From Porphyromonas vaginalis (GTDB taxonomy: Bacteria > Bacteroidota > Bacteroidia > Bacteroidales > Porphyromonadaceae), in the NCBI RefSeq assembly GCF_958301595.1, contig NZ_CATQJU010000001.1, positions 1,736,001-1,800,000 on the forward strand: a stretch of 64,000 nt of DNA, given 5' to 3'. This document shows positions 55,031 through 63,557 of this stretch, one piece after another. The notes beneath the pieces were generated by a model. The model searched no databases, was not told where the DNA came from, and saw nothing but the letters and a program-made list of their open reading frames with translations. The position numbers and the translations under genes are program-made. Numbering within the stretch: the first letter of the stretch is position 1; each line of letters starts with the position of its first letter.

Positions 55031-55038
55031 CAAAGGTA
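55031..55038 (-). promoter_or_regulatory. Promoter of nspC (-7 box)
   Basis: The minus strand reads TACCTTTG. Transcription would start near 55024. It faces away from the HTH gene promoter at 55110. Confidence 0.65.
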
Positions 55039-55085
55039 CTAAATAGGAAGTGTAGCACCAAAAATCGCAGATTTAACGTATTAAG

Positions 55086-55117
55086 TTTGTGATATAGCAT
55101 AAAGTTCGCTACATTTG
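55086..55117 (+). promoter_or_regulatory. Promoter of the defence-like operon (-33 TTTG and -7 box)
   Basis: TTTG at 55086-55089 and TACATTTG at 55110-55117, separated by 20 bp, both elements of the Bacteroidetes promoter. The predicted start near 55124 excludes the ATG at 55115 and supports the one at 55142. Confidence 0.7.
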
Positions 55118-55141
55118 CATGCCATCAATATAGATTTTTAT

Positions 55142-55360
55142 ATGGAAAAGCTGAATCGTATAAAAGAAGTGCTTGATAGTCGGGGCACAACTCAAACTTG
55201 GTTAGCCAATCAGTTGGGCTGTCATTTTAGTACTGTAAATGCCTATTGTAGTCAAAGGCTACAGCCGAGTTTGAATACACTCGCTGAAATAGGTAAGATA
55301 CTGAATGTCGATTTGAAAGACCTGATTACTGACAAAGAAGAACGAGAGACGAACAATTAA
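55142..55360 (+). CDS. Small XRE-type helix-turn-helix regulator
   Basis: 72 residues from the ATG at 55142 (MEKLNRIKEVLDSRGTTQTWLANQ). A single HTH-XRE domain: KEVLDSRGTTQTWLANQLGCHFSTVNAYCSQRLQPSLNTLAEIGKILNV. The gene overlaps the start of the next by one base (TAATG). Size and place resemble control proteins of restriction-modification systems, which time expression of the methylase and nuclease. Probably autoregulatory; no operator could be fixed by eye. Confidence 0.9.
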   Translation: MEKLNRIKEVLDSRGTTQTWLANQLGCHFSTVNAYCSQRLQPSLNTLAEIGKILNVDLKDLITDKEERETNN

Positions 55361-58300
55361 TGTGTATGGCTAGAACTCATTTTTTCAATAATACAGATGG
55401 CAACTCCCTCTTTGCAAAATTGAGGGGCATTGCACAGAATATGCCTAACTTCGACCGATTCCTGGCTGTAGTAGGCTTCTTCCGCTCGTCTGGCTACTTC
55501 AAGCTCCGCAAGGAATTAGAAGGTGGCGATGGTAAGGATGTGGAAGAAATCAAGATATTAGTGGGTATCAACATCGATGATATATTCCGCAGGCACAACA
55601 AGGCTCTGCTCTTCCTCTCCGACGAGGAGAAAGCCAAGAGTATCTATGAGCAAGACTTTGTGGAGGATATTAAGAATGCTCGTTACACCCCCGAAGTGGA
55701 AGAAGGTATCATGACCATGATTCAAGACATAGCTGATGGTCGCCTGCAAATGCGCATTCATGCTTCAAAGAATTTACATGCCAAGTTCTATCTATGCCTA
55801 CCCAATAACCATAATGAGAATACGGATGGTTGGGTTATCATGGGTTCGTCAAATATCTCTGATTCAGGTCTGGGCTTGACACAACCGCCAAGATATGAGC
55901 TGAACGTATCCATGAAGGACTTTGAAGATGTTGACTTTTGCCATGAGGAGTTCAAAAGATTATGGGAAGAAGGTGTGCCATTGACGCTTGATGATATTGA
56001 TGCCTTCAAAAAGAAAACCTATTTGGGCTATCAGCCAACTCCCTACGAACTGTTCATCAAAGTACTCATCGATGCCTTTGGCGATCAGGTCGAAGATGAT
56101 TTCACGATTCAACTCCCTGATGGTGTCAAAGATTTGAAGTACCAAAAGGACGCTGTAATACAGGGGTATCAGATGCTTCTCGACCACAACGGATGCTTCC
56201 TTGCCGACGTCGTTGGTCTTGGTAAGACAATGATTGCTACTATGATAGCTAAGCGCTACATAGAAGCCAATGGTCGTAATACCAGCATTTTGGTTGTATA
56301 TCCTCCTGCTCTGGAAGATAACTGGAAGAGCACGTTTAAGTTGTTTGGTATCAAGAAGCACGCCCAATTCATCACCAATGGTAGCTTAAATAAAATCCTT
56401 GAGGGGAAAGACCAGTATAAGGATAAGGAAGAATTTGACCTTATTATCGTGGACGAAGCGCACGGCTTCCGTAGCGATAGCGCCAACAAATATGACGAAC
56501 TACAGAAAATCTGCAAGTCGCCTTGCTGTAACCCAGGCTTGCTGCGCAGCACTCAGAAACGAGTGATGCTGCTTTCTGCTACCCCTTTGAACAATCGTCC
56601 TGAGGACTTGCTCAATCAGCTCCTGCTGTTTCAGAATAGCCAAACTTGCACGATTGATGGTGTGCCCAACTTGAAGGCATTCTTCACTCCCATTATCACG
56701 GACTACAAGAAGCTGATGAAGGAGCGTGAGACACGCAATGTGACGGATGATGTGGATAAACTCTATGACAATATTCGTAAGAAGGTGATTGATAAGGTAA
56801 CTGTACGTCGTACACGTAACAACATCCTGAACGACCCTGATTATTGCAACGATATTCAGGAACAGGGCATTGTATTCCCTAACATTTTTCCTCCCGTACC
56901 TTTGGAATACAAGATGGATGAAGACACCAGCAAACGTTTCTTTGAAACACTGGCTACGCTTTCGGACGAAGAAAACCCTGAGCACCTTGAATACGCTCGT
57001 TATCGTGCCATTGAGTTCTTGAAGCCCGAACTTCGAGGCCAATTTGGTAATGCGGTTCATGTAGCCCAGACATTGGCAGCCATCTATCGTGTTCACATGG
57101 TGAAACGACTGGAAAGCTCTTTCTATGCCTTCAAGAAATCATTGGCCACACTGCTGCGCATCACGCAGGATATGATCAAGATGTTCGAGGAAGACAAGGT
57201 CGTCATTGCCCCTAAACTCAACGTCAAAGACTTGATGATGAAGGATGTGGAACTGGACGAAATTATTGAATTTGCTATTAGTAAGGGATATAATGAAAGT
57301 GAGTTCCTCTTCAAAGCAGATGATTTCGACCCCTCATTCCGAGAAATGCTTGAGAATGATGTCAAACTCCTGAAGGTGTTGAATGAAGACTGGGCAAAAG
57401 AAAACGAAGACCCTAAGTTCGACGAGTTTAAAGCACATCTGATGCCAGACTTTTTGGATAAAGATAAAAACCCTGAAGAGAAACTGGTCATCTTCTCTGA
57501 AAGTGTAGATACCCTGACCTATCTTTACGGTCGATTGACCGAAGAGCTGGGGCGCAATGACGTACTGATGGTAACGGCTAAGAACCGTAACGACATGAAG
57601 GAGCGCATCAAACATAACTTTGATGCCAACGACAGCACAGATAGTCGTGAATACAATATCATCATCACGTCGGATGTATTGGCCGAAGGAGTCAACTTGC
57701 ACCGTTCCAATGTTATCATCAACTACGATTCACCTTGGAATGCCACCAGACTGATGCAGCGTATTGGCCGTGTGAACCGTATCGGATCGAAAGCAGAGAA
57801 CATCTACAACTACATGTTCTACCCGTCAAAACAGGGTGACCATGAGATTCAGCTATATGCCAATGCTTTGGTGAAGCTGCAAGGTTTCCATTCTGCCTTT
57901 GGCGAAGATGCTCAGATTTATTCTAAGGAAGAAATCGTTAGGCAGTTTGAAATCTTTGACAGCAAGGTAAAAGACTCAGTAGATAAGAAGATTGCCCTGC
58001 TGCGTGAGGTGCGTGAACTGTATAATAGCGACCGAAAACTCTACCACAAGATTAAGGCACTTCCCATGAAGAGCCGTGTACTTCGAGACAACAAGAAACG
58101 TGCAGGCCAGACCATTGTCTTTGTGTCATCCAACGTCAAGACTGAGTTCTATCTTGCAGAAGAAAACGACGTGCATATCATCGACTTCTTGGATGCCGTG
58201 GATTATCTCAGGGCCAAACCCGAAGAGAAGGCATTGCCCTTCACGAACGAAGAAGCACATTATAAGAATGTCAATAAGGCTTTGGAGAAGTATGTGCGCG

Positions 58301-58662
58301 ATTTTGTGGAGGTGGCAGACACCAATACAGTTGTTCGCACCGACCTTGACAAGGTCTCGTTGGAAGCCAATAACTTCCTGCGCACTGTGAAGCAGATTTC
58401 TCAGGATGCTACTCTCAAGAAGCATTGCGATACACTCATGGCTTTTGTAACAGCCGGTGTCTATCAGAAGTTACCGAGATACATCCGTGAATTGGCACGT
58501 GAGTATAAAAACGATAGGGCGAAAATGAAGCAAGACGAATTTGTTTTGCAATCAAAACTCGATACTTTGGTGTCTGAGTATAACACGCAAGACAAGTACA
58601 AAGAAGGCAACCAAGTGGCCATCGGTGACCCTCAAATTATTATTTCTGAATCTTTTATCTGA
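55360..58662 (+). CDS. PLD-nuclease / SNF2-type helicase fusion
   Basis: 1100 residues. A phospholipase-D-type domain (about 5-200) has HAKFYL (H140, K142) and GSSNISDSGL, the HxK...GSxN motif of PLD nucleases. The helicase follows: Walker A ADVVGLGKT (282-290), DEAH (365-368), LLSATPLNN (405-412), then the C-terminal domain with IFSESVDTLTYLYGRL, TSDVLAEGVNL and QRIGRVNRIG (800-809). A single PLD domain suggests a dimer. The order HTH, PLD-helicase, methylase fits a restriction-type anti-phage system. Translationally coupled upstream and 7 bp before the methylase. Start at 55360 or 55366. Confidence 0.92.
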   Translation: MCMARTHFFNNTDGNSLFAKLRGIAQNMPNFDRFLAVVGFFRSSGYFKLRKELEGGDGKDVEEIKILVGINIDDIFRRHNKALLFLSDEEKAKSIYEQDFVEDIKNARYTPEVEEGIMTMIQDIADGRLQMRIHASKNLHAKFYLCLPNNHNENTDGWVIMGSSNISDSGLGLTQPPRYELNVSMKDFEDVDFCHEEFKRLWEEGVPLTLDDIDAFKKKTYLGYQPTPYELFIKVLIDAFGDQVEDDFTIQLPDGVKDLKYQKDAVIQGYQMLLDHNGCFLADVVGLGKTMIATMIAKRYIEANGRNTSILVVYPPALEDNWKSTFKLFGIKKHAQFITNGSLNKILEGKDQYKDKEEFDLIIVDEAHGFRSDSANKYDELQKICKSPCCNPGLLRSTQKRVMLLSATPLNNRPEDLLNQLLLFQNSQTCTIDGVPNLKAFFTPIITDYKKLMKERETRNVTDDVDKLYDNIRKKVIDKVTVRRTRNNILNDPDYCNDIQEQGIVFPNIFPPVPLEYKMDEDTSKRFFETLATLSDEENPEHLEYARYRAIEFLKPELRGQFGNAVHVAQTLAAIYRVHMVKRLESSFYAFKKSLATLLRITQDMIKMFEEDKVVIAPKLNVKDLMMKDVELDEIIEFAISKGYNESEFLFKADDFDPSFREMLENDVKLLKVLNEDWAKENEDPKFDEFKAHLMPDFLDKDKNPEEKLVIFSESVDTLTYLYGRLTEELGRNDVLMVTAKNRNDMKERIKHNFDANDSTDSREYNIIITSDVLAEGVNLHRSNVIINYDSPWNATRLMQRIGRVNRIGSKAENIYNYMFYPSKQGDHEIQLYANALVKLQGFHSAFGEDAQIYSKEEIVRQFEIFDSKVKDSVDKKIALLREVRELYNSDRKLYHKIKALPMKSRVLRDNKKRAGQTIVFVSSNVKTEFYLAEENDVHIIDFLDAVDYLRAKPEEKALPFTNEEAHYKNVNKALEKYVRDFVEVADTNTVVRTDLDKVSLEANNFLRTVKQISQDATLKKHCDTLMAFVTAGVYQKLPRYIRELAREYKNDRAKMKQDEFVLQSKLDTLVSEYNTQDKYKEGNQVAIGDPQIIISESFI

Positions 58663-58669
58663 TTGAAAT

Positions 58670-61600
58670 ATGAACTATTCAAAAGAAGATTTCAGAGCTT
58701 TATTTCAGGCAAAGTTCGACTATAACAAGTGGTTTGCTATGCTGAGGGATTTCTTCAAGGCTGACGAACTGCGTACTACGGCAGAGCCTATTTCCGACCC
58801 TGCCGACTGTGATAAGGGTTGCTACATTGGTGCCATCAATACCAGTGATAGCTATCGGATTGGTCTGTTCTATTACGAAATAGGTCATAGCAATGTGGCT
58901 CGTAAAAAGGTAGGCCTGCGCAATCTTGTGCGTACTTTCATCAATTCCAAGTGGGGGCAATTTGATGCCGCCCTTGCTGTCTTCTCCGATGGCAAGCACT
59001 GGCGCTTGTCTTTAATCAGCGATATTAAAGGCGAAGCTACAGCAGTCAAGCGCTATACCTTTGTCTTCGGTGAGAAGGACAACCTGTACCGTACTGCTAT
59101 CGAGCGATTTGCACTCATCCGTTCAGAAGGACCATCTTTTGAGGTATTGAAAAAAGCATTCTCTGTTGAAGCACTCACCGAGGAGTTCTTTGGCTTGTAC
59201 AAAGAGCACTATGAGCGTTTTTGTGACTTCATTTATCAGAATGCAGATGATAGACGTTATTTCGGTCCTGAGTTTGCTCAGTGGAATAGCAATGAGGACA
59301 GCCAAAAGTACATCCGCGACTACGTAAAGAATTTGATGGGACGCATTGTGTTCCTACAGTTCCTTCAAAAGAAGGGCTGGATGGGTGTGCCTACCGATAG
59401 AAATGATTGGGCAGGCGGTGACCCTTACTTCATGCAGCATCTTTACGACTATGCCACCGAAGCGCAGAAGGAAGACTTCTTGGATCAAGTACTCGAACCC
59501 TTGTTCTTTAATTGCCTCAATGTGCTCCGCCCTAATGATGTATTCGACACCAACGTCAATGGTATCGGCACTGTCAAGGTACCCTATCTAAATGGTGAAC
59601 TCTTTGAACAAAAGGAGGAGGATAAGGCGCAGTCAAAGTTCCCCAAAAAGTACTTCCACGACCTGCTGAACCTCTTCTTGCAGTACAACTTCACCATCGA
59701 CGAAAACGACCCCAATGATGCGGAAATCGGCGTTGACCCTGAAATGTTGGGCAAGATTTTCGAGAACCTTTTGGAGGACAACAAAGATAAGGGCGCATTC
59801 TATACGCCCAAGGAGATTGTGCGCTATATGTGCAAGGAGAGCTTGATCTCTTATCTTTGCTCGAATAATGGCGTGGAGCATGCCGACTCCATTAAGACGT
59901 TGGTCAACAACCACCAGCTGACGGACAAACTTCAAGAGGATGTCCAGACCTGCGAGTGCCTGAACAAGCATTTGCGCAACGTGAAGGTGTGTGACCCTGC
60001 CATCGGTTCGGGCGCCTTCCCTATGGGCTTGATGAATGAAATATTTGCTTGTCGCAGTGTGCTGCATGAGAATATTGAGGAAACCGACGAAGAAACGAGT
60101 GGTCAAATCAAGCGTGAGATTATTCAGAATAATATCTACGGTGTGGATATTGAGCAAGGTGCTGTAGATATTGCTCGCCTGCGCTTCTGGTTGGCACTTG
60201 TGGTGGACTCTGTAAAGCCGGAACCGCTGCCTAACTTGGACTATAAGATTATGCAGGGTAACTCGTTGGTTGAGAGCTACAAGGGGTTAGACCTTTCCAA
60301 TCTACTTCATAACAATTCTTTATTTGTTGCACCCAAAGCGGAAGAGCTTGGCAAGTATATGAAGAGGTATTTCCGAGCCACTGACAACGAGGAAAAACGT
60401 CAACTTCGTGAAAATATAGACTTTGCCGTAAAGCAGTGCATTGATGCGGCTGGTATTAAGGATACTGTAGAGCTTCCTAATACTGATTTCTTCTTGTGGC
60501 ATACCTATTTTCATGATGTGTTTAAGGAGGGAGGCTTTGATATAGTTATCGGGAATCCGCCGTATCTACGCATACAGGGTATCCGAAAGAGTGATTCTGC
60601 TTTTGCTGACCTTCTAGGTCAAACCTTTACGTCTGCAACTGGTTCCTTTGATCTTTATGTTTGTTTTGCAGAACAGGCTCTTAATATGATTCAACAAAAA
60701 GGAGTGGTCAATTTCATTATGCCTGTAAAATGGACCAATGCAGCCTTTGGCAAAGGCTTGCGTAAAGTGGTTGCATCACGCAAGGCTATGTCGCGCATTA
60801 TTAACTTCTCTGAATATCAAGTATTCAATGCTTCCACCTATACAGGATTACAATGGTTTATTCCCGAGAGTGAGCACTTGGATTACAACGAGCTGAAATC
60901 AGACCTCAAGACTAATGATGAACTGAACACGTATCTGCAAGGGTTAAATGATTTCGGACAAATAGACGCATCAAGTCTAACATCCGATGCATGGGTGCTT
61001 ACACAAGGTGCTATAACGGCTGTACTTCAAAAGCTAAATGAACAACCAAGGCGAGTGAGCGATGTGTTTTCAAAGATATTCCAAGGTCTTGCAACTAGCA
61101 AGGATCCCGTCTATTTCCTTAATCATTGTCGAGAAGAGAATGATATCGTTTATGGATGGTCTGCTGAACTAGACAAGGAGGTAGCTGTGGAGAAAGGCAT
61201 AGTACGTCCTTTGCTAAAAGGCGATGATGTACATCGCTATGATGATATTAAGACGGAGAGAGTGGTGATTTTTCCGTATGAAAGGAAGCCAGATTCTAAG
61301 GTCGTTTTAATGAAAGAAGACTATTTATCTCAAGACTTCCCTAAGGCATACTCTTACTTAAAAGAATGCGAAGATGTTCTTAAAGCTAGAGAGCACGGTA
61401 GATTCGATATCAAAGGAGAATGGTTCCAATTTGGAAGGAAACAAGGTATGGATGCAGCAGATAATGAGAAGTTAGTAGCACCTGATATATCAATGGGTGG
61501 TAATTTTGCATATGATGTAAATGGACAATTCTATCAAACAACCACCATTTATGGATACCTCAGAAAAGAAGGTGTCAAAGATAGCTACAAATTTTTGTTG

Positions 61601-61927
61601 GCTTTGCTCAATTCAACACTCTGTTGGCGTTTTTTGGTAAACACTGGTACGGTATTGGCTAATGGATATTTCAGATATAAACCTGACTATATCAAGCCTT
61701 TCCCTATTCCTGCTTACGAGGCAGTGCAAAATATTGAGAGTAGAATCACAACGCTCGTAGACAACATCCTATACTCCAAGCGTCTCGACCCCTCTGCCGA
61801 CACTACTGCCGACGAGCAAGAAATCGACCGCTTGGTATATCATCTTTACGGTCTCACCTACGATGAAGTGAAGATAGTAGATCCCGAAACTCCGATAACA
61901 GAAGAAGAATACACTAAGGAGGCCTAA
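58670..61927 (+). CDS. Eco57I-like N6-adenine DNA methyltransferase with C-terminal specificity domain
   Basis: 1085 residues. The N-terminal region (about 1-170) has LAVFSDGKHWRLSL, reminiscent of the nuclease-like N-terminus of type IIG and HsdR-type enzymes, though no complete PD-ExK was confirmed. Helical region to 370; methylase core with DKGAFYTPKEIVRYM (375), motif I VCDPAIGSGAFPMG (440-452), NIYGVDIEQGAVDIARLR (488-505) and motif IV FDIVIGNPPYLRIQG (623-637). From about 790 a TaqI-like target-recognition part (GIVRPLLKGDDVHRY, LLALLNSTLCWRFL). It would mark host DNA; whether it also cuts is unknown. Confidence 0.93.
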   Translation: MNYSKEDFRALFQAKFDYNKWFAMLRDFFKADELRTTAEPISDPADCDKGCYIGAINTSDSYRIGLFYYEIGHSNVARKKVGLRNLVRTFINSKWGQFDAALAVFSDGKHWRLSLISDIKGEATAVKRYTFVFGEKDNLYRTAIERFALIRSEGPSFEVLKKAFSVEALTEEFFGLYKEHYERFCDFIYQNADDRRYFGPEFAQWNSNEDSQKYIRDYVKNLMGRIVFLQFLQKKGWMGVPTDRNDWAGGDPYFMQHLYDYATEAQKEDFLDQVLEPLFFNCLNVLRPNDVFDTNVNGIGTVKVPYLNGELFEQKEEDKAQSKFPKKYFHDLLNLFLQYNFTIDENDPNDAEIGVDPEMLGKIFENLLEDNKDKGAFYTPKEIVRYMCKESLISYLCSNNGVEHADSIKTLVNNHQLTDKLQEDVQTCECLNKHLRNVKVCDPAIGSGAFPMGLMNEIFACRSVLHENIEETDEETSGQIKREIIQNNIYGVDIEQGAVDIARLRFWLALVVDSVKPEPLPNLDYKIMQGNSLVESYKGLDLSNLLHNNSLFVAPKAEELGKYMKRYFRATDNEEKRQLRENIDFAVKQCIDAAGIKDTVELPNTDFFLWHTYFHDVFKEGGFDIVIGNPPYLRIQGIRKSDSAFADLLGQTFTSATGSFDLYVCFAEQALNMIQQKGVVNFIMPVKWTNAAFGKGLRKVVASRKAMSRIINFSEYQVFNASTYTGLQWFIPESEHLDYNELKSDLKTNDELNTYLQGLNDFGQIDASSLTSDAWVLTQGAITAVLQKLNEQPRRVSDVFSKIFQGLATSKDPVYFLNHCREENDIVYGWSAELDKEVAVEKGIVRPLLKGDDVHRYDDIKTERVVIFPYERKPDSKVVLMKEDYLSQDFPKAYSYLKECEDVLKAREHGRFDIKGEWFQFGRKQGMDAADNEKLVAPDISMGGNFAYDVNGQFYQTTTIYGYLRKEGVKDSYKFLLALLNSTLCWRFLVNTGTVLANGYFRYKPDYIKPFPIPAYEAVQNIESRITTLVDNILYSKRLDPSADTTADEQEIDRLVYHLYGLTYDEVKIVDPETPITEEEYTKEA

Positions 61928-62082
61928 TCTATCGACTTTATCCAATTGCGTCCACACTGCGGACGCAATTCATCCTATCTTCGAAATATCAACTCTATCT
62001 TCCCTCTTCGGAGGAATTAATCCGAGAGATTGACGAGGTGAGAAAACTATCTAATTCCCGCATTGAAGAAGACAAACTTTAG
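61918..62082 (+). pseudogene. Open frame without a start, possible gene remnant, with a hairpin
   Basis: Between the methylase and the next gene one frame stays open without an ATG and ends SSEELIREIDEVRKLSNSRIEEDKL before TAG at 62080. The composition looks coding. No family was recognised. The stretch holds a perfect hairpin AATTGCGTCC-acactgc-GGACGCAATT (61944-61970). It may be a decayed gene end or chance. Confidence 0.3.
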
Positions 62083-62087
62083 AAATT

Positions 62088-62759
62088 ATGAGCCGATTAG
62101 ACGACCTATATAAAGCCATGGAGACCCTTCGCAAAGAAGGGCTTCCTGTACACGATGACCTTGAACAAAAGGCCAGCGAACTTGAAGAAGAAATCATCAA
62201 GAAAGAGATTCTTCCCGTATTGACCAAGACCATTGAACCAGCACTGCAACCAGTGCAGCGTGAATTGGTGTTGGTGGTAGATTATGTGCCCGGGCAGCCA
62301 CTCAGTGTTCACCTTAGTCGTAAGCGTAACTTCACAGCAGAGCTGGATGATGCCAAAGAAATTGTACTCGACCCTGAGGTTTCACACTCCAGTCATGAGC
62401 AAAAAGCTACAGATGATAAGATAGAGCGTGGCCCGACTCGCGACCTTTCTGTCATCTTCCCCGATGGCACCGAAATAGCAGAAAAGACCGCTGTGGAAAC
62501 GCTCGTGAAAGTAGTCAAGAAAATTGGTGTAGCCGAAGTTCGTAAAGTGGTGGAGGATTATAACTTGAAATTCTGCAAGGTTCCTGTCATCTCTAACAGA
62601 AGGGATGAAAAGTATGGCAAAAGCCAAAAGGACTTGGGTGGTGGTTGGCTACTTATTACGCATAGCAACAACCCAATGAAGAAAGCGTTTCTTGATAAGG
62701 TTTCTCAAGTTCTACATTTGGGACTTATAGTAAAGTTAGCCGAGAATAGAGTATCATGA
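62088..62759 (+). CDS. Uncharacterised protein, last gene of the defence-like operon
   Basis: 223 residues, family not recognised. Start MSRLDDLYKAMETLRKEGLPVHDDLEQKASELEEE, an acidic helical region likely to form a coiled coil (1-60). Then a beta-rich middle (about 64-85: LVLVVDYVPGQPLSVHLSRKR) and a conserved-looking C-terminal half (FPDGTEIAEKTAVETLVKVVKKIG...GGGWLLITHSNNPMKKAFLDKVSQVL). No membrane segment, signal peptide or nuclease motif. Same strand and low GC as the methylase, 160 bp later, and followed by the composite repeat, so it belongs to the island. It may be an effector, sensor or specificity partner. Confidence 0.75.
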   Translation: MSRLDDLYKAMETLRKEGLPVHDDLEQKASELEEEIIKKEILPVLTKTIEPALQPVQRELVLVVDYVPGQPLSVHLSRKRNFTAELDDAKEIVLDPEVSHSSHEQKATDDKIERGPTRDLSVIFPDGTEIAEKTAVETLVKVVKKIGVAEVRKVVEDYNLKFCKVPVISNRRDEKYGKSQKDLGGGWLLITHSNNPMKKAFLDKVSQVLHLGLIVKLAENRVS

Positions 62760-62789
62760 ATGAATATACGAAACACCCCGACCTCGCTC

Positions 62790-62888
62790 AGGGCTGACGC
62801 ATTATATAGAATGAGCCCATCGACTTCTCTATTCTTCAATTGTCGTGACGTGTAGCTCCTGACAGAGTGATTATAAGGCGCAGCCCTG
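62790..62888. repeat. Palindrome-ended module AGGGCTGACGC...GCGCAGCCCT
   Basis: About 97 bp bounded by AGGGCTGACGCATTATA and TATAAGGCGCAGCCCT. The same kind of module forms the right end of the composite copies at 3942-4033 and 63235-63332, and an inverted arm occurs at 3329-3408. Inside is a recognisable TGTAGCTCCTGACAGAGTGA. Confidence 0.8.
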
Positions 62889-62911
62889 GCGGTGAAAACT
62901 CAACTTCACCT

Positions 62912-63332
62912 CGTTACAATAATTTAGAGCCGACTACATATCGAAACGGCACCGTGTCGGTGAAAAGTGATTTCCACGTGGATATTTCAAAATCTCCACG
63001 TGGAGAATGAAAAATTCCTCGGAGGAATGAAATGAAACTTCGGAGGAATGAAATGAAACTTCGGAAGAAATGAATCACGCCCACGTGGAAAATAAAAAAC
63101 ATCCACGTGGAGATTTGAGATTCCCCACGTGGATATTCGAGAAAGGAGGGGATCGGACGAATTTCCCCGTAAAGATATGTAAATAGAGATTAGAGGTTAG
63201 AAGTTAGAGATTAGAGATCGGAGAGATTAGAGGGCAGGGGGGGACACATTATTATATATAGAGAGATCATCTATCCCTCGCTTGTCGCTCATGTGTAGCT
63301 ACTAAAAGAGTGATTATAACGCGTCAGCCCTG
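62912..63332. repeat. Composite palindromic intergenic element, copy 3
   Basis: About 420 bp, closest to copy 1. CCACGTGG boxes at 62974 and 62996 (22 bp apart) and a second group near 63080-63135. The core has two CTTCGGAGGAATGAAATGAAA-type units in the same direction as copy 1. A TTAGAGGTTAGAAG tract and the palindrome-ended module finish at GCGTCAGCCCTG (63332). No gene. Confidence 0.85.
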
Positions 63333-63374
63333 CGACCTCGCTCCTGATGACTATGACGATAGGTGGCTTTTTTG

Positions 63375-63382: not shown

Positions 63383-63386
63383 CGAC

Positions 63387-63503
63387 TGATTCAAGAGGAG
63401 AGGTGCAATTCCTTACCGGTGGTATAGTCCACAACTCCCATAGCGGGACTGATATGGTGTAACTCCATAACCGACGGTGATAGTCCGGATGGTATTCGAA
63501 TCA
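63387..63503 (+). promoter_or_regulatory. FMN riboswitch (RFN element)
   Basis: P1 pairs TGATTC (63387-63392) with GAATCA (63498-63503). Hallmark stretches: AGAGGTGCAATTCCTTACCGG, GGTATAGTCCAC, GATATGGTGTAACTCC, AACCGACGGTGATAGTCCGG. These match the conserved core of the RFN element. It binds FMN and lowers expression of riboflavin genes, here ribB 107 bp downstream. Confidence 0.93.
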
Positions 63504-63557
63504 AGATGCCACTGACCCTATCGGGGCTTCGGCTCTACAGGTCGACGCATCTACTTT
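63504..63557 (+). terminator. Expression-platform hairpin downstream of the riboswitch
   Basis: AGATGC (63504-63509) and GACC (63514-63517) pair with GGTC (63540-63543) and GCATCT (63547-63552), followed by ACTTTTG. An inner GGGGC-ttcg-GCTCT stem adds stability. It fits a terminator controlled by FMN binding, though the T run is short. Confidence 0.5.

What the first reader, a model, noticed from the sequence alone, without database searches (positions are those of the whole stretch)
55086..62759. Defence-like operon: HTH regulator, PLD-SNF2 helicase fusion, Eco57I-like methylase and an unknown 223-residue protein
Seen: four co-directional genes under one promoter, the first three overlapping or a few bases apart, lower GC than the surrounding core genes, bounded downstream by a composite repeat. 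The first large protein carries both a PLD nuclease motif and a complete SNF2 helicase; the second is an adenine methylase with a target-recognition end. Known: helicase, PLD and methylase sets occur in DISARM and related anti-phage systems, and a helicase-methylase-ATPase type has been described. Inference: the fusion layout, the lack of DrmB- or PglZ-like partners and the extra unknown gene do not fit a named system I know, so it may be a new or little-studied variant.
Basis: partly seen in the sequence, partly recalled or inferred. Interest (0 to 1): 0.78.

Follow-up and report, generated by a model that had tools for sequence, protein, structure and literature searches.

The report
Restriction operon with SeqA-like methyl reader
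A mobile 8 kb bacterial island carries a DNA-marking enzyme, a helicase fused to a DNA-cutting domain, and a small protein whose tail appears to fold like SeqA, the E. coli protein that reads half-methylated DNA, which suggests a restriction system with its own methylation reader.

The parts
55069..63332 (.). Island: inserted segment between a PLP-dependent decarboxylase gene (nspC-like) and the FMN-riboswitch/ribB gene
   Evidence: G013, G020 and G002 carry the two flanks next to each other, 2 bp between the matched ends
55086..55117 (+). Promoter-like site TTTG-N20-TAnnTTTG
   Evidence: 2 in window, 0.21 expected; consensus recalled
55142..55360 (+). A: Cro/C1-type HTH regulator, 72 aa
   Evidence: Pfam HTH_26 3.3e-8
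55366..58662 (+). B: HKD/PLD nuclease fused to SNF2 helicase (ORF opens at 55360; residue numbers count from there)
55708..55965 (+). B: PLD-like domain, single HxK...GSSN...E motif (H140, K142, G162-N165, E180)
   Evidence: PLDc_2 27.3 bits, cut-off 27; invariant in the 35 rows that cover it
56140..57786 (+). B: SNF2/ResIII helicase core
   Evidence: motifs invariant
58670..61927 (+). C: Eco57I/IIG-type N6-adenine methyltransferase, 1085 aa
   Evidence: Pfam Eco57I 2.3e-39, TaqI_C 5.5e-8; PADLOC REase_MTase_IIG 1.4e-92
58670..59149 (+). C: N-terminal alpha/beta domain, possibly a decayed nuclease fold
59177..59806 (+). C: helical part like the spacer of type IIL MmeI
60554..60565 (+). C: catalytic NPPY; sequence diverges from L013 just after it
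   Evidence: NPP[YFW] in 30 of 30 rows; identity profile
60566..61804 (+). C: exchangeable target-recognition cassette (aa 633-1045)
   Evidence: DNA identity to L013 mostly 0.8-1.0 before, 0.17-0.52 inside, 0.68-0.85 after; 52-55% protein identity to the recognition halves of L066/L069
61930..62070 (+). Scar of an internally deleted YhcG/DUF1016 nuclease gene
   Evidence: two abutting in-frame pieces match aa 86-99 (E 0.009) and 304-323 (E 3e-4) of the L057 protein; second piece matches L069, E 6e-7, small custom database; L069 protein is DUF1016_N + YhcG_C
62088..62759 (+). D: 223-aa protein, N-terminal helical part, linker, SeqA-like C-terminal domain
62439..62741 (+). D: SeqA-like domain (aa 118-218)
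62760..63332 (.). Repeat-rich tail of the island (CCACGTGG palindromes, 31-nt and 21-nt direct repeats)
   Evidence: inside the island

Best explanation
The island encodes an ATP-dependent restriction-modification system built from split parts. C, a methylase of type IIG/IIL descent whose own nuclease domain has probably decayed, marks an adenine motif set by its exchangeable recognition cassette. B moves on DNA with its SNF2 motor and cuts unmarked DNA with its HKD/PLD domain, probably as a dimer because it has one HKD motif. D is an accessory that reads methylation state through a SeqA-like domain; most likely it binds hemimethylated or methylated C sites and adjusts restriction or re-methylation after replication. 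A probably regulates the operon. Shown here: gene content, conserved B-C linkage, intact catalytic motifs, cassette exchange, island insertion, SeqA-like modelled fold and profile of D. Inferred: restriction of phage or plasmid DNA, B-C cooperation, what D binds, what A regulates.
Confidence: 0.6

Rival explanations
1. B-C is a restriction-modification system as above, but D is not a methyl reader: its SeqA-like fold binds DNA or protein for another purpose, such as operon regulation or complex assembly.
For: SeqA reader positions vary in D; the domain also occurs fused to an HSDR_N nuclease domain (L022) and, by eye, behind an AIPR-like gene and in cytosine-methylase operons, where general DNA binding would also serve.
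Against: Most of its contexts look like restriction or defence operons; T191 and K198 are invariant in 6 of 6 full-length D proteins and align with T149 and K156 of SeqA, K156 being invariant in six SeqA rows; the profile match covers the whole domain.
Confidence: 0.3
2. The locus is mainly an epigenetic switch (phasevarion) that changes gene expression; defence is secondary.
For: Opposite-strand recognition cassettes with an Mpi-like invertase in four relatives.
Against: No cassette or invertase match elsewhere in the window's genome (one search has no positive control); a nuclease-helicase with invariant catalytic sites is kept; patchy distribution.
Confidence: 0.12
3. A DISARM relative that lost DrmA and DrmB and works like DISARM on unmethylated DNA.
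For: B scores 149 bits with NCBIfam DrmD and 122 with PADLOC DrmD; C scores 99 bits with PADLOC DrmMI.
Against: The NCBIfam DrmD cut-off is 610 bits; the MZB/DUF1998 family is absent from the whole genome while the control rings in 8 of 14 genomes; better matches are HKD+Snf2 C3a139 and IIG methylases.
Confidence: 0.1
4. A decaying island whose restriction function is lost.
For: YhcG scar, no invertase found, repeat-rich tail.
Against: All four ORFs open and catalytic motifs of B and C intact.
Confidence: 0.1

Closest known systems
Type IIG/IIL restriction-modification enzymes (MmeI kind)
   Same: Eco57I/MmeI-type methylase core, helical part, TaqI_C-like recognition end
   Different: Nuclease motif of the N-terminal domain not kept in the window; a separate PLD-SNF2 protein sits next door
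BREX-related (BR) type 2 systems, PMC12839542 (outline, passages, sections 29 and 30 read)
   Same: HKD endonuclease fused to a Swi2/Snf2 helicase plus an N6-methylase
   Different: BR has a DUF499 ATPase (absent from this genome), DUF3780 and a methylase with a nested recognition domain; C has a C-terminal recognition domain
DISARM with DrmD/DrmMI
   Same: SNF2 helicase, adenine methylase and PLD nuclease activities in one operon (DISARM content recalled)
   Different: No DrmB-type family in the genome; PLD fused to the helicase; score far below the DrmD cut-off
Hma (PMC8565338, passages read)
   Same: Helicase and methylase in one operon
   Different: HmaB is an m5C methylase and HmaC an ATPase; C is an N6-adenine type and the operon has no separate ATPase gene
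Phase-variable restriction systems with inverting recognition genes (type I hsdS; PMC5903667 passages read)
   Same: Opposite-strand recognition cassettes and an invertase in relatives L017, L054, L066, L069
   Different: Here the cassette belongs to a IIG-type methylase paired with a PLD-SNF2 protein; the window copy has no cassette or invertase
SeqA (PDB 1lrr, 3fmt, 1iu3, 3sk7)
   Same: C-terminal fold in the model and binding-loop profile; helical N-terminus, linker, C-terminal domain
   Different: D lies in restriction operons of Bacteroidia, has no Pfam hit, and varies at positions recalled as base readers

Membership tests
DISARM | DrmB (MZB/DUF1998 family, link recalled) present | tested here: not met
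   PF09369 absent from own genome; control rings in 8 of 14
DISARM | Helicase scores as DrmD | tested here: not met
   149.2 bits against cut-off 610
BREX | PglZ in the operon | tested here: not met
   The only PglZ match in the genome is about 1 Mb away, in a 577-aa frame
BREX-related type 2 | HKD nuclease fused to Swi2/Snf2 helicase | tested here: met
BREX-related type 2 | DUF499 ATPase | tested here: not met
   PF04465 absent from own genome; control rings in 1 of 14
BREX-related type 2 | DUF3780 gene in the locus | tested here: inconclusive
   No Pfam match of that name in the four proteins at E up to 1; I did not check that the model is in the library
Hma | m5C methylase HmaB | tested here: not met
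   C is Eco57I type with NPPY; definition from PMC8565338
Type IIG R-M enzyme | Methylase with helical spacer and recognition domain in one chain | tested here: met
Type IIG R-M enzyme | Active N-terminal PD-(D/E)XK nuclease in the same chain | tested here: inconclusive
Restriction-modification system (general) | Methylation protects, nuclease cuts unmarked DNA | not testable with these tools
   needs bench work
SeqA | SeqA C-terminal fold | tested here: met
SeqA | Pfam SeqA score over cut-off | tested here: not met
   D has no Pfam hit at E up to 1; in the own genome the one sub-threshold SeqA match is elsewhere
SeqA | Binding of hemimethylated GATC | not testable with these tools
   needs a binding assay

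The most novel reading that the evidence does not exclude
D belongs to a family of SeqA-fold methyl-adenine readers that serve restriction and defence systems in Bacteroidia. Here it senses half-methylated C sites behind the replication fork and holds back B until C has restored the mark; where the same domain is fused to an HSDR_N nuclease domain it would instead aim the nuclease at methylated DNA (a type IV-like use).
Probability: 0.4. Interest if true: 0.8.

Novelty: new variant of a known kind. Interest (0 to 1): 0.62.

Why it matters
How restriction systems avoid cutting their own freshly copied, half-methylated DNA is a long-standing question; a SeqA-like reader inside restriction operons would make it directly testable. 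It would also extend the SeqA fold from replication control in gammaproteobacteria to defence in Bacteroidia, suggest a function for an unnamed domain, and draw attention to a common pairing of a PLD-SNF2 protein with a cassette-switching methylase (44 of 395 sampled class genomes carry a B homologue at the threshold used).

Tried and rejected
Rejected: DISARM, BREX, BR and Hma (membership table). I first took the low-scoring loci L092-L095 for BR type 2; Pfam showed type III restriction genes with DUF4391 in L095 and an AAA_13 gene in L094 (L092 and L093 not scanned), so that was dropped. I thought relative G018 might carry its related operon at the same site; the ORF beside its decarboxylase gene reads by eye as RelA/SpoT-type, so no.

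Led nowhere: other copies of the recognition cassette in the own genome (only the window itself) or of the L054 invertase (nothing; no positive control); PDB sequence search with the D profile (four rows, best a 61-aa chain named DBL6, E 0.0048, on the N-terminal helices; no SeqA); SeqA in phage records (none); D in phage records (none); sigma-70 and terminator scans (counts near the shuffles); Foldseek with the C N-terminus (best E 0.16).

Searches (SeqA with restriction and anti-phage terms; 15 of 88 papers listed; SeqA-like, domain, fold, family, superfamily, homolog; 5 papers, listing only) showed no report of a SeqA-like domain in restriction systems. Searches showed none on inverting recognition cassettes in a PLD-SNF2 plus IIG-methylase pair; two listed only part of their hits (20 of 47, 15 of 48). 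The library lacks most subscription papers, so this is no proof. Papers read in part: PMC12839542 (outline, 12 of 36 passages, sections 29 and 30); PMC12458937, PMC10853773, PMC5903667, PMC8565338, PMC12715929, PMC12707154 (passages); PMC13337833 (a find that returned nothing).

Limits of the counts: profiles match their seeds by construction. Seeds were L054, L066, L069 (invertase); L057, L059, L060, L069 (YhcG); window, L015, L016, L017 (HTH); window, L009, L011, L013, L014, L015, L017 (C). Of the 8 rows of alignment A2 that seeds the B survey, all but L016 were already known or annotated to have a methylase nearby; the 26 survey-only loci are free of this. L013 (442 aa) and L091 (284 aa) were dropped from the B tree as too short. 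The tree is a quick one with long-branch warnings and no DrmD row.
Full report
WHAT IS THERE. The four co-directional genes are confirmed: A (HTH, ATG 55142), B (PLD-SNF2, 55360/55366-58662), C (methylase, 58670-61927) and D (223 aa, 62088-62759). A promoter-like site of the Bacteroidetes type (consensus recalled) stands at 55086-55117, with a divergent one at 55031-55062; 2 in the window, 0.21 expected, 2 of 100 shuffles reach 2. GC is 0.41-0.47 in the operon and 0.55-0.61 in the 5 kb to its left. The left neighbours are a PLP-dependent decarboxylase, an SRP54-type GTPase and a radical SAM/TRAM protein; to the right lie an FMN riboswitch (63385-63505) and a DHBP synthase gene.

ISLAND. All 26 genomes of the genus searched have the decarboxylase gene. 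Of the four with 97-98% identical copies I fetched the neighbouring stretch: in three (G013, G020, G002) window base 55068 is followed, after 2 bp, by window base 63333; the fourth (G018) diverges beyond 55064, where another gene follows. The inserted segment is therefore 55069-63332 and includes the repeat-rich tail. I noticed no target duplication at its ends.

B AND C ARE A CONSERVED PAIR. A profile of B found 44 of 395 sampled genomes of the class at E <= 1e-80. I asked for the surroundings of all 44 places outside the window (some contigs end early). In a quick tree of 55 B proteins a clade of 37 holds the window, SH-aLRT 100. In that clade a C homologue lies on the same strand near B in 34 of 37 loci: 32 downstream, at times with one to three ORFs between, and 2 upstream (L018, L076). 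Of the three misses, L045 and L077 end at a contig edge and L075 lacks it in the 15 kb seen. Counting only loci found by the survey, it is 23 of 26. In the sister group of 18 rows, 11 have a C-profile match near B, L019 included; I confirmed Pfam Eco57I only for L082.

THE RECOGNITION HALF OF C MOVES. Against L013 (B fragment 94% identical in protein) DNA identity is mostly 0.8-1.0 through B and C up to the NPPY codons, 0.17-0.52 from residue ~647 to ~1046, and 0.68-0.85 at the end. The window cassette is instead 52-55% identical to the recognition halves of L066 and L069, although the N-terminal part of C is only 38-40% identical to theirs. Six of 37 clade loci (L009, L014, L017, L054, L066, L069) carry a piece of the recognition half on the opposite strand behind C, L017 two. 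Four of them (L017, L054, L066, L069) also carry an Mpi-like serine invertase (Pfam Resolvase checked for L054; annotated as master DNA invertase in L017; L066 and L069 by profile and eye). Inverted repeats are 314 nt at 95% in L054, 47 nt at 96% over the NPPY codons in L017, and 126-128 nt at 73-74% in L066 and L069; L009 and L014 show none of 20 nt or more. Many contigs end just behind C, so six may be a low count. The window's genome shows no second cassette and no match to the L054 invertase (without a positive control), so this copy is probably fixed.

SCAR. The 160 bp between C and D encode, in one frame, two abutting pieces that match residues 86-99 (E 0.009) and 304-323 (E 3e-4) of a 329-aa protein of L057; the second piece also matches L069 with E 6e-7 (small custom database). 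The L069 protein is DUF1016_N plus YhcG_C. YhcG genes lie between B and C in L057, L059, L060, L069 and, in two pieces, L072. I conclude that the window lost a YhcG gene by an internal deletion. Other accessory genes around B and C in the loci scanned are AlbA-type (L055), KilA-N (L067), AAA/SMC-type (L016), TIR (L015) and, in the sister group, DarT (L085).

WHERE D OCCURS. Searches with D gave eight full-length proteins: the window; a Parabacteroides distasonis plasmid (80% identical; HTH - RNA-binding-domain protein - B - C - hypothetical - TIR - D - AAA); L019, L082 and L097 behind helicase-methylase pairs (L019 with a 104-aa ORF between and its helicase cut by the contig end); L098 in what reads by eye as a type I operon; L020 without restriction genes by eye within about 9 kb; and L099, split in two frames beside an ATPase-like gene. 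So 5 of 8 share an operon-like run with a PLD-SNF2 plus methylase pair. At E <= 1e-5 the D profile matches 4 of 395 class genomes and 15 of 392 order genomes, partial matches included. The domain alone is fused to HSDR_N (L022, Pfam; L101 and L104 by eye), follows an AIPR-like gene (L021, by eye) and ends large proteins of cytosine-methylase/HATPase operons (L100, L102, by eye).

HOW IT MOST LIKELY WORKS. C methylates its motif; B, an ATP-driven helicase-nuclease, attacks DNA without the mark; D binds methylated or hemimethylated sites and tunes the two, for example by sparing newly copied DNA. This is the logic of established restriction-modification systems; the roles of B, C and D here are inferred.

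COMPARED WITH WHAT IS KNOWN. The best database matches are PADLOC C3a139 HKD+Snf2 (E 7.5e-46) for B and REase_MTase_IIG (E 1.4e-92) for C; no NCBIfam model passes its cut-off in any of the four proteins. DUF499 and MZB are absent from the genome, and the one PglZ match lies about 1 Mb away. HKD-helicase fusions with methylases are in print for BR type 2 (PMC12839542 section 30) and for CxC-ABC/Pbe systems (PMC10853773 passages). What I did not find described is the two-gene pairing with a IIG-type methylase, its cassette switching, and the SeqA-like reader (searches named in Tried and rejected).

VERDICT. A real, mobile, intact-looking restriction-type operon; new variant of a known kind, with one part, the SeqA-like domain, for which I found no published precedent in the searches named.

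Noticed in passing
L022:8771-9877, L101:8379-9446, L104:9243-10313: SeqA-like domain fused to an HSDR_N-type nuclease domain in single proteins (Pfam for L022; by eye for the others); candidates for methylation-directed nucleases.
   Followed up: partly
L100:1221-9605 and L102:2793-10605: Operons that by eye hold a cytosine methylase, an HATPase-like protein and further genes, ending in a large protein with SeqA-like domains; families not scanned.
   Followed up: no
L017:12272-20402: Prevotella nigrescens plasmid record: methylase, two opposite-strand recognition cassettes, an ATP-binding gene and an Mpi-type invertase, with a 47-nt inverted repeat at the NPPY codons: a good model for methylase switching.
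   Followed up: partly
L085:15067-16736: A DarT-type gene (Pfam) follows the methylase and is followed by a macrodomain-like gene (by eye), suggesting a DarTG-like module inside the operon.
   Followed up: no
window 62970-63137: Clustered CCACGTGG palindromes with start spacing 22, 85, 22; similar stretches (80-83%) occur at two further places near the site in G020 (L134).
   Followed up: no
window 63385-63505: FMN riboswitch in front of the DHBP synthase gene, just right of the island.
   Followed up: yes
G000:C1:783243-783824: A PglZ-domain frame of 577 aa elsewhere in the genome; recalled as typical of the response regulator PorX in this group rather than BREX.
   Followed up: no
L092-L095: A more distant PLD-SNF2 branch; in L095 it lies beside type III restriction genes with a DUF4391 gene.
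   Followed up: partly
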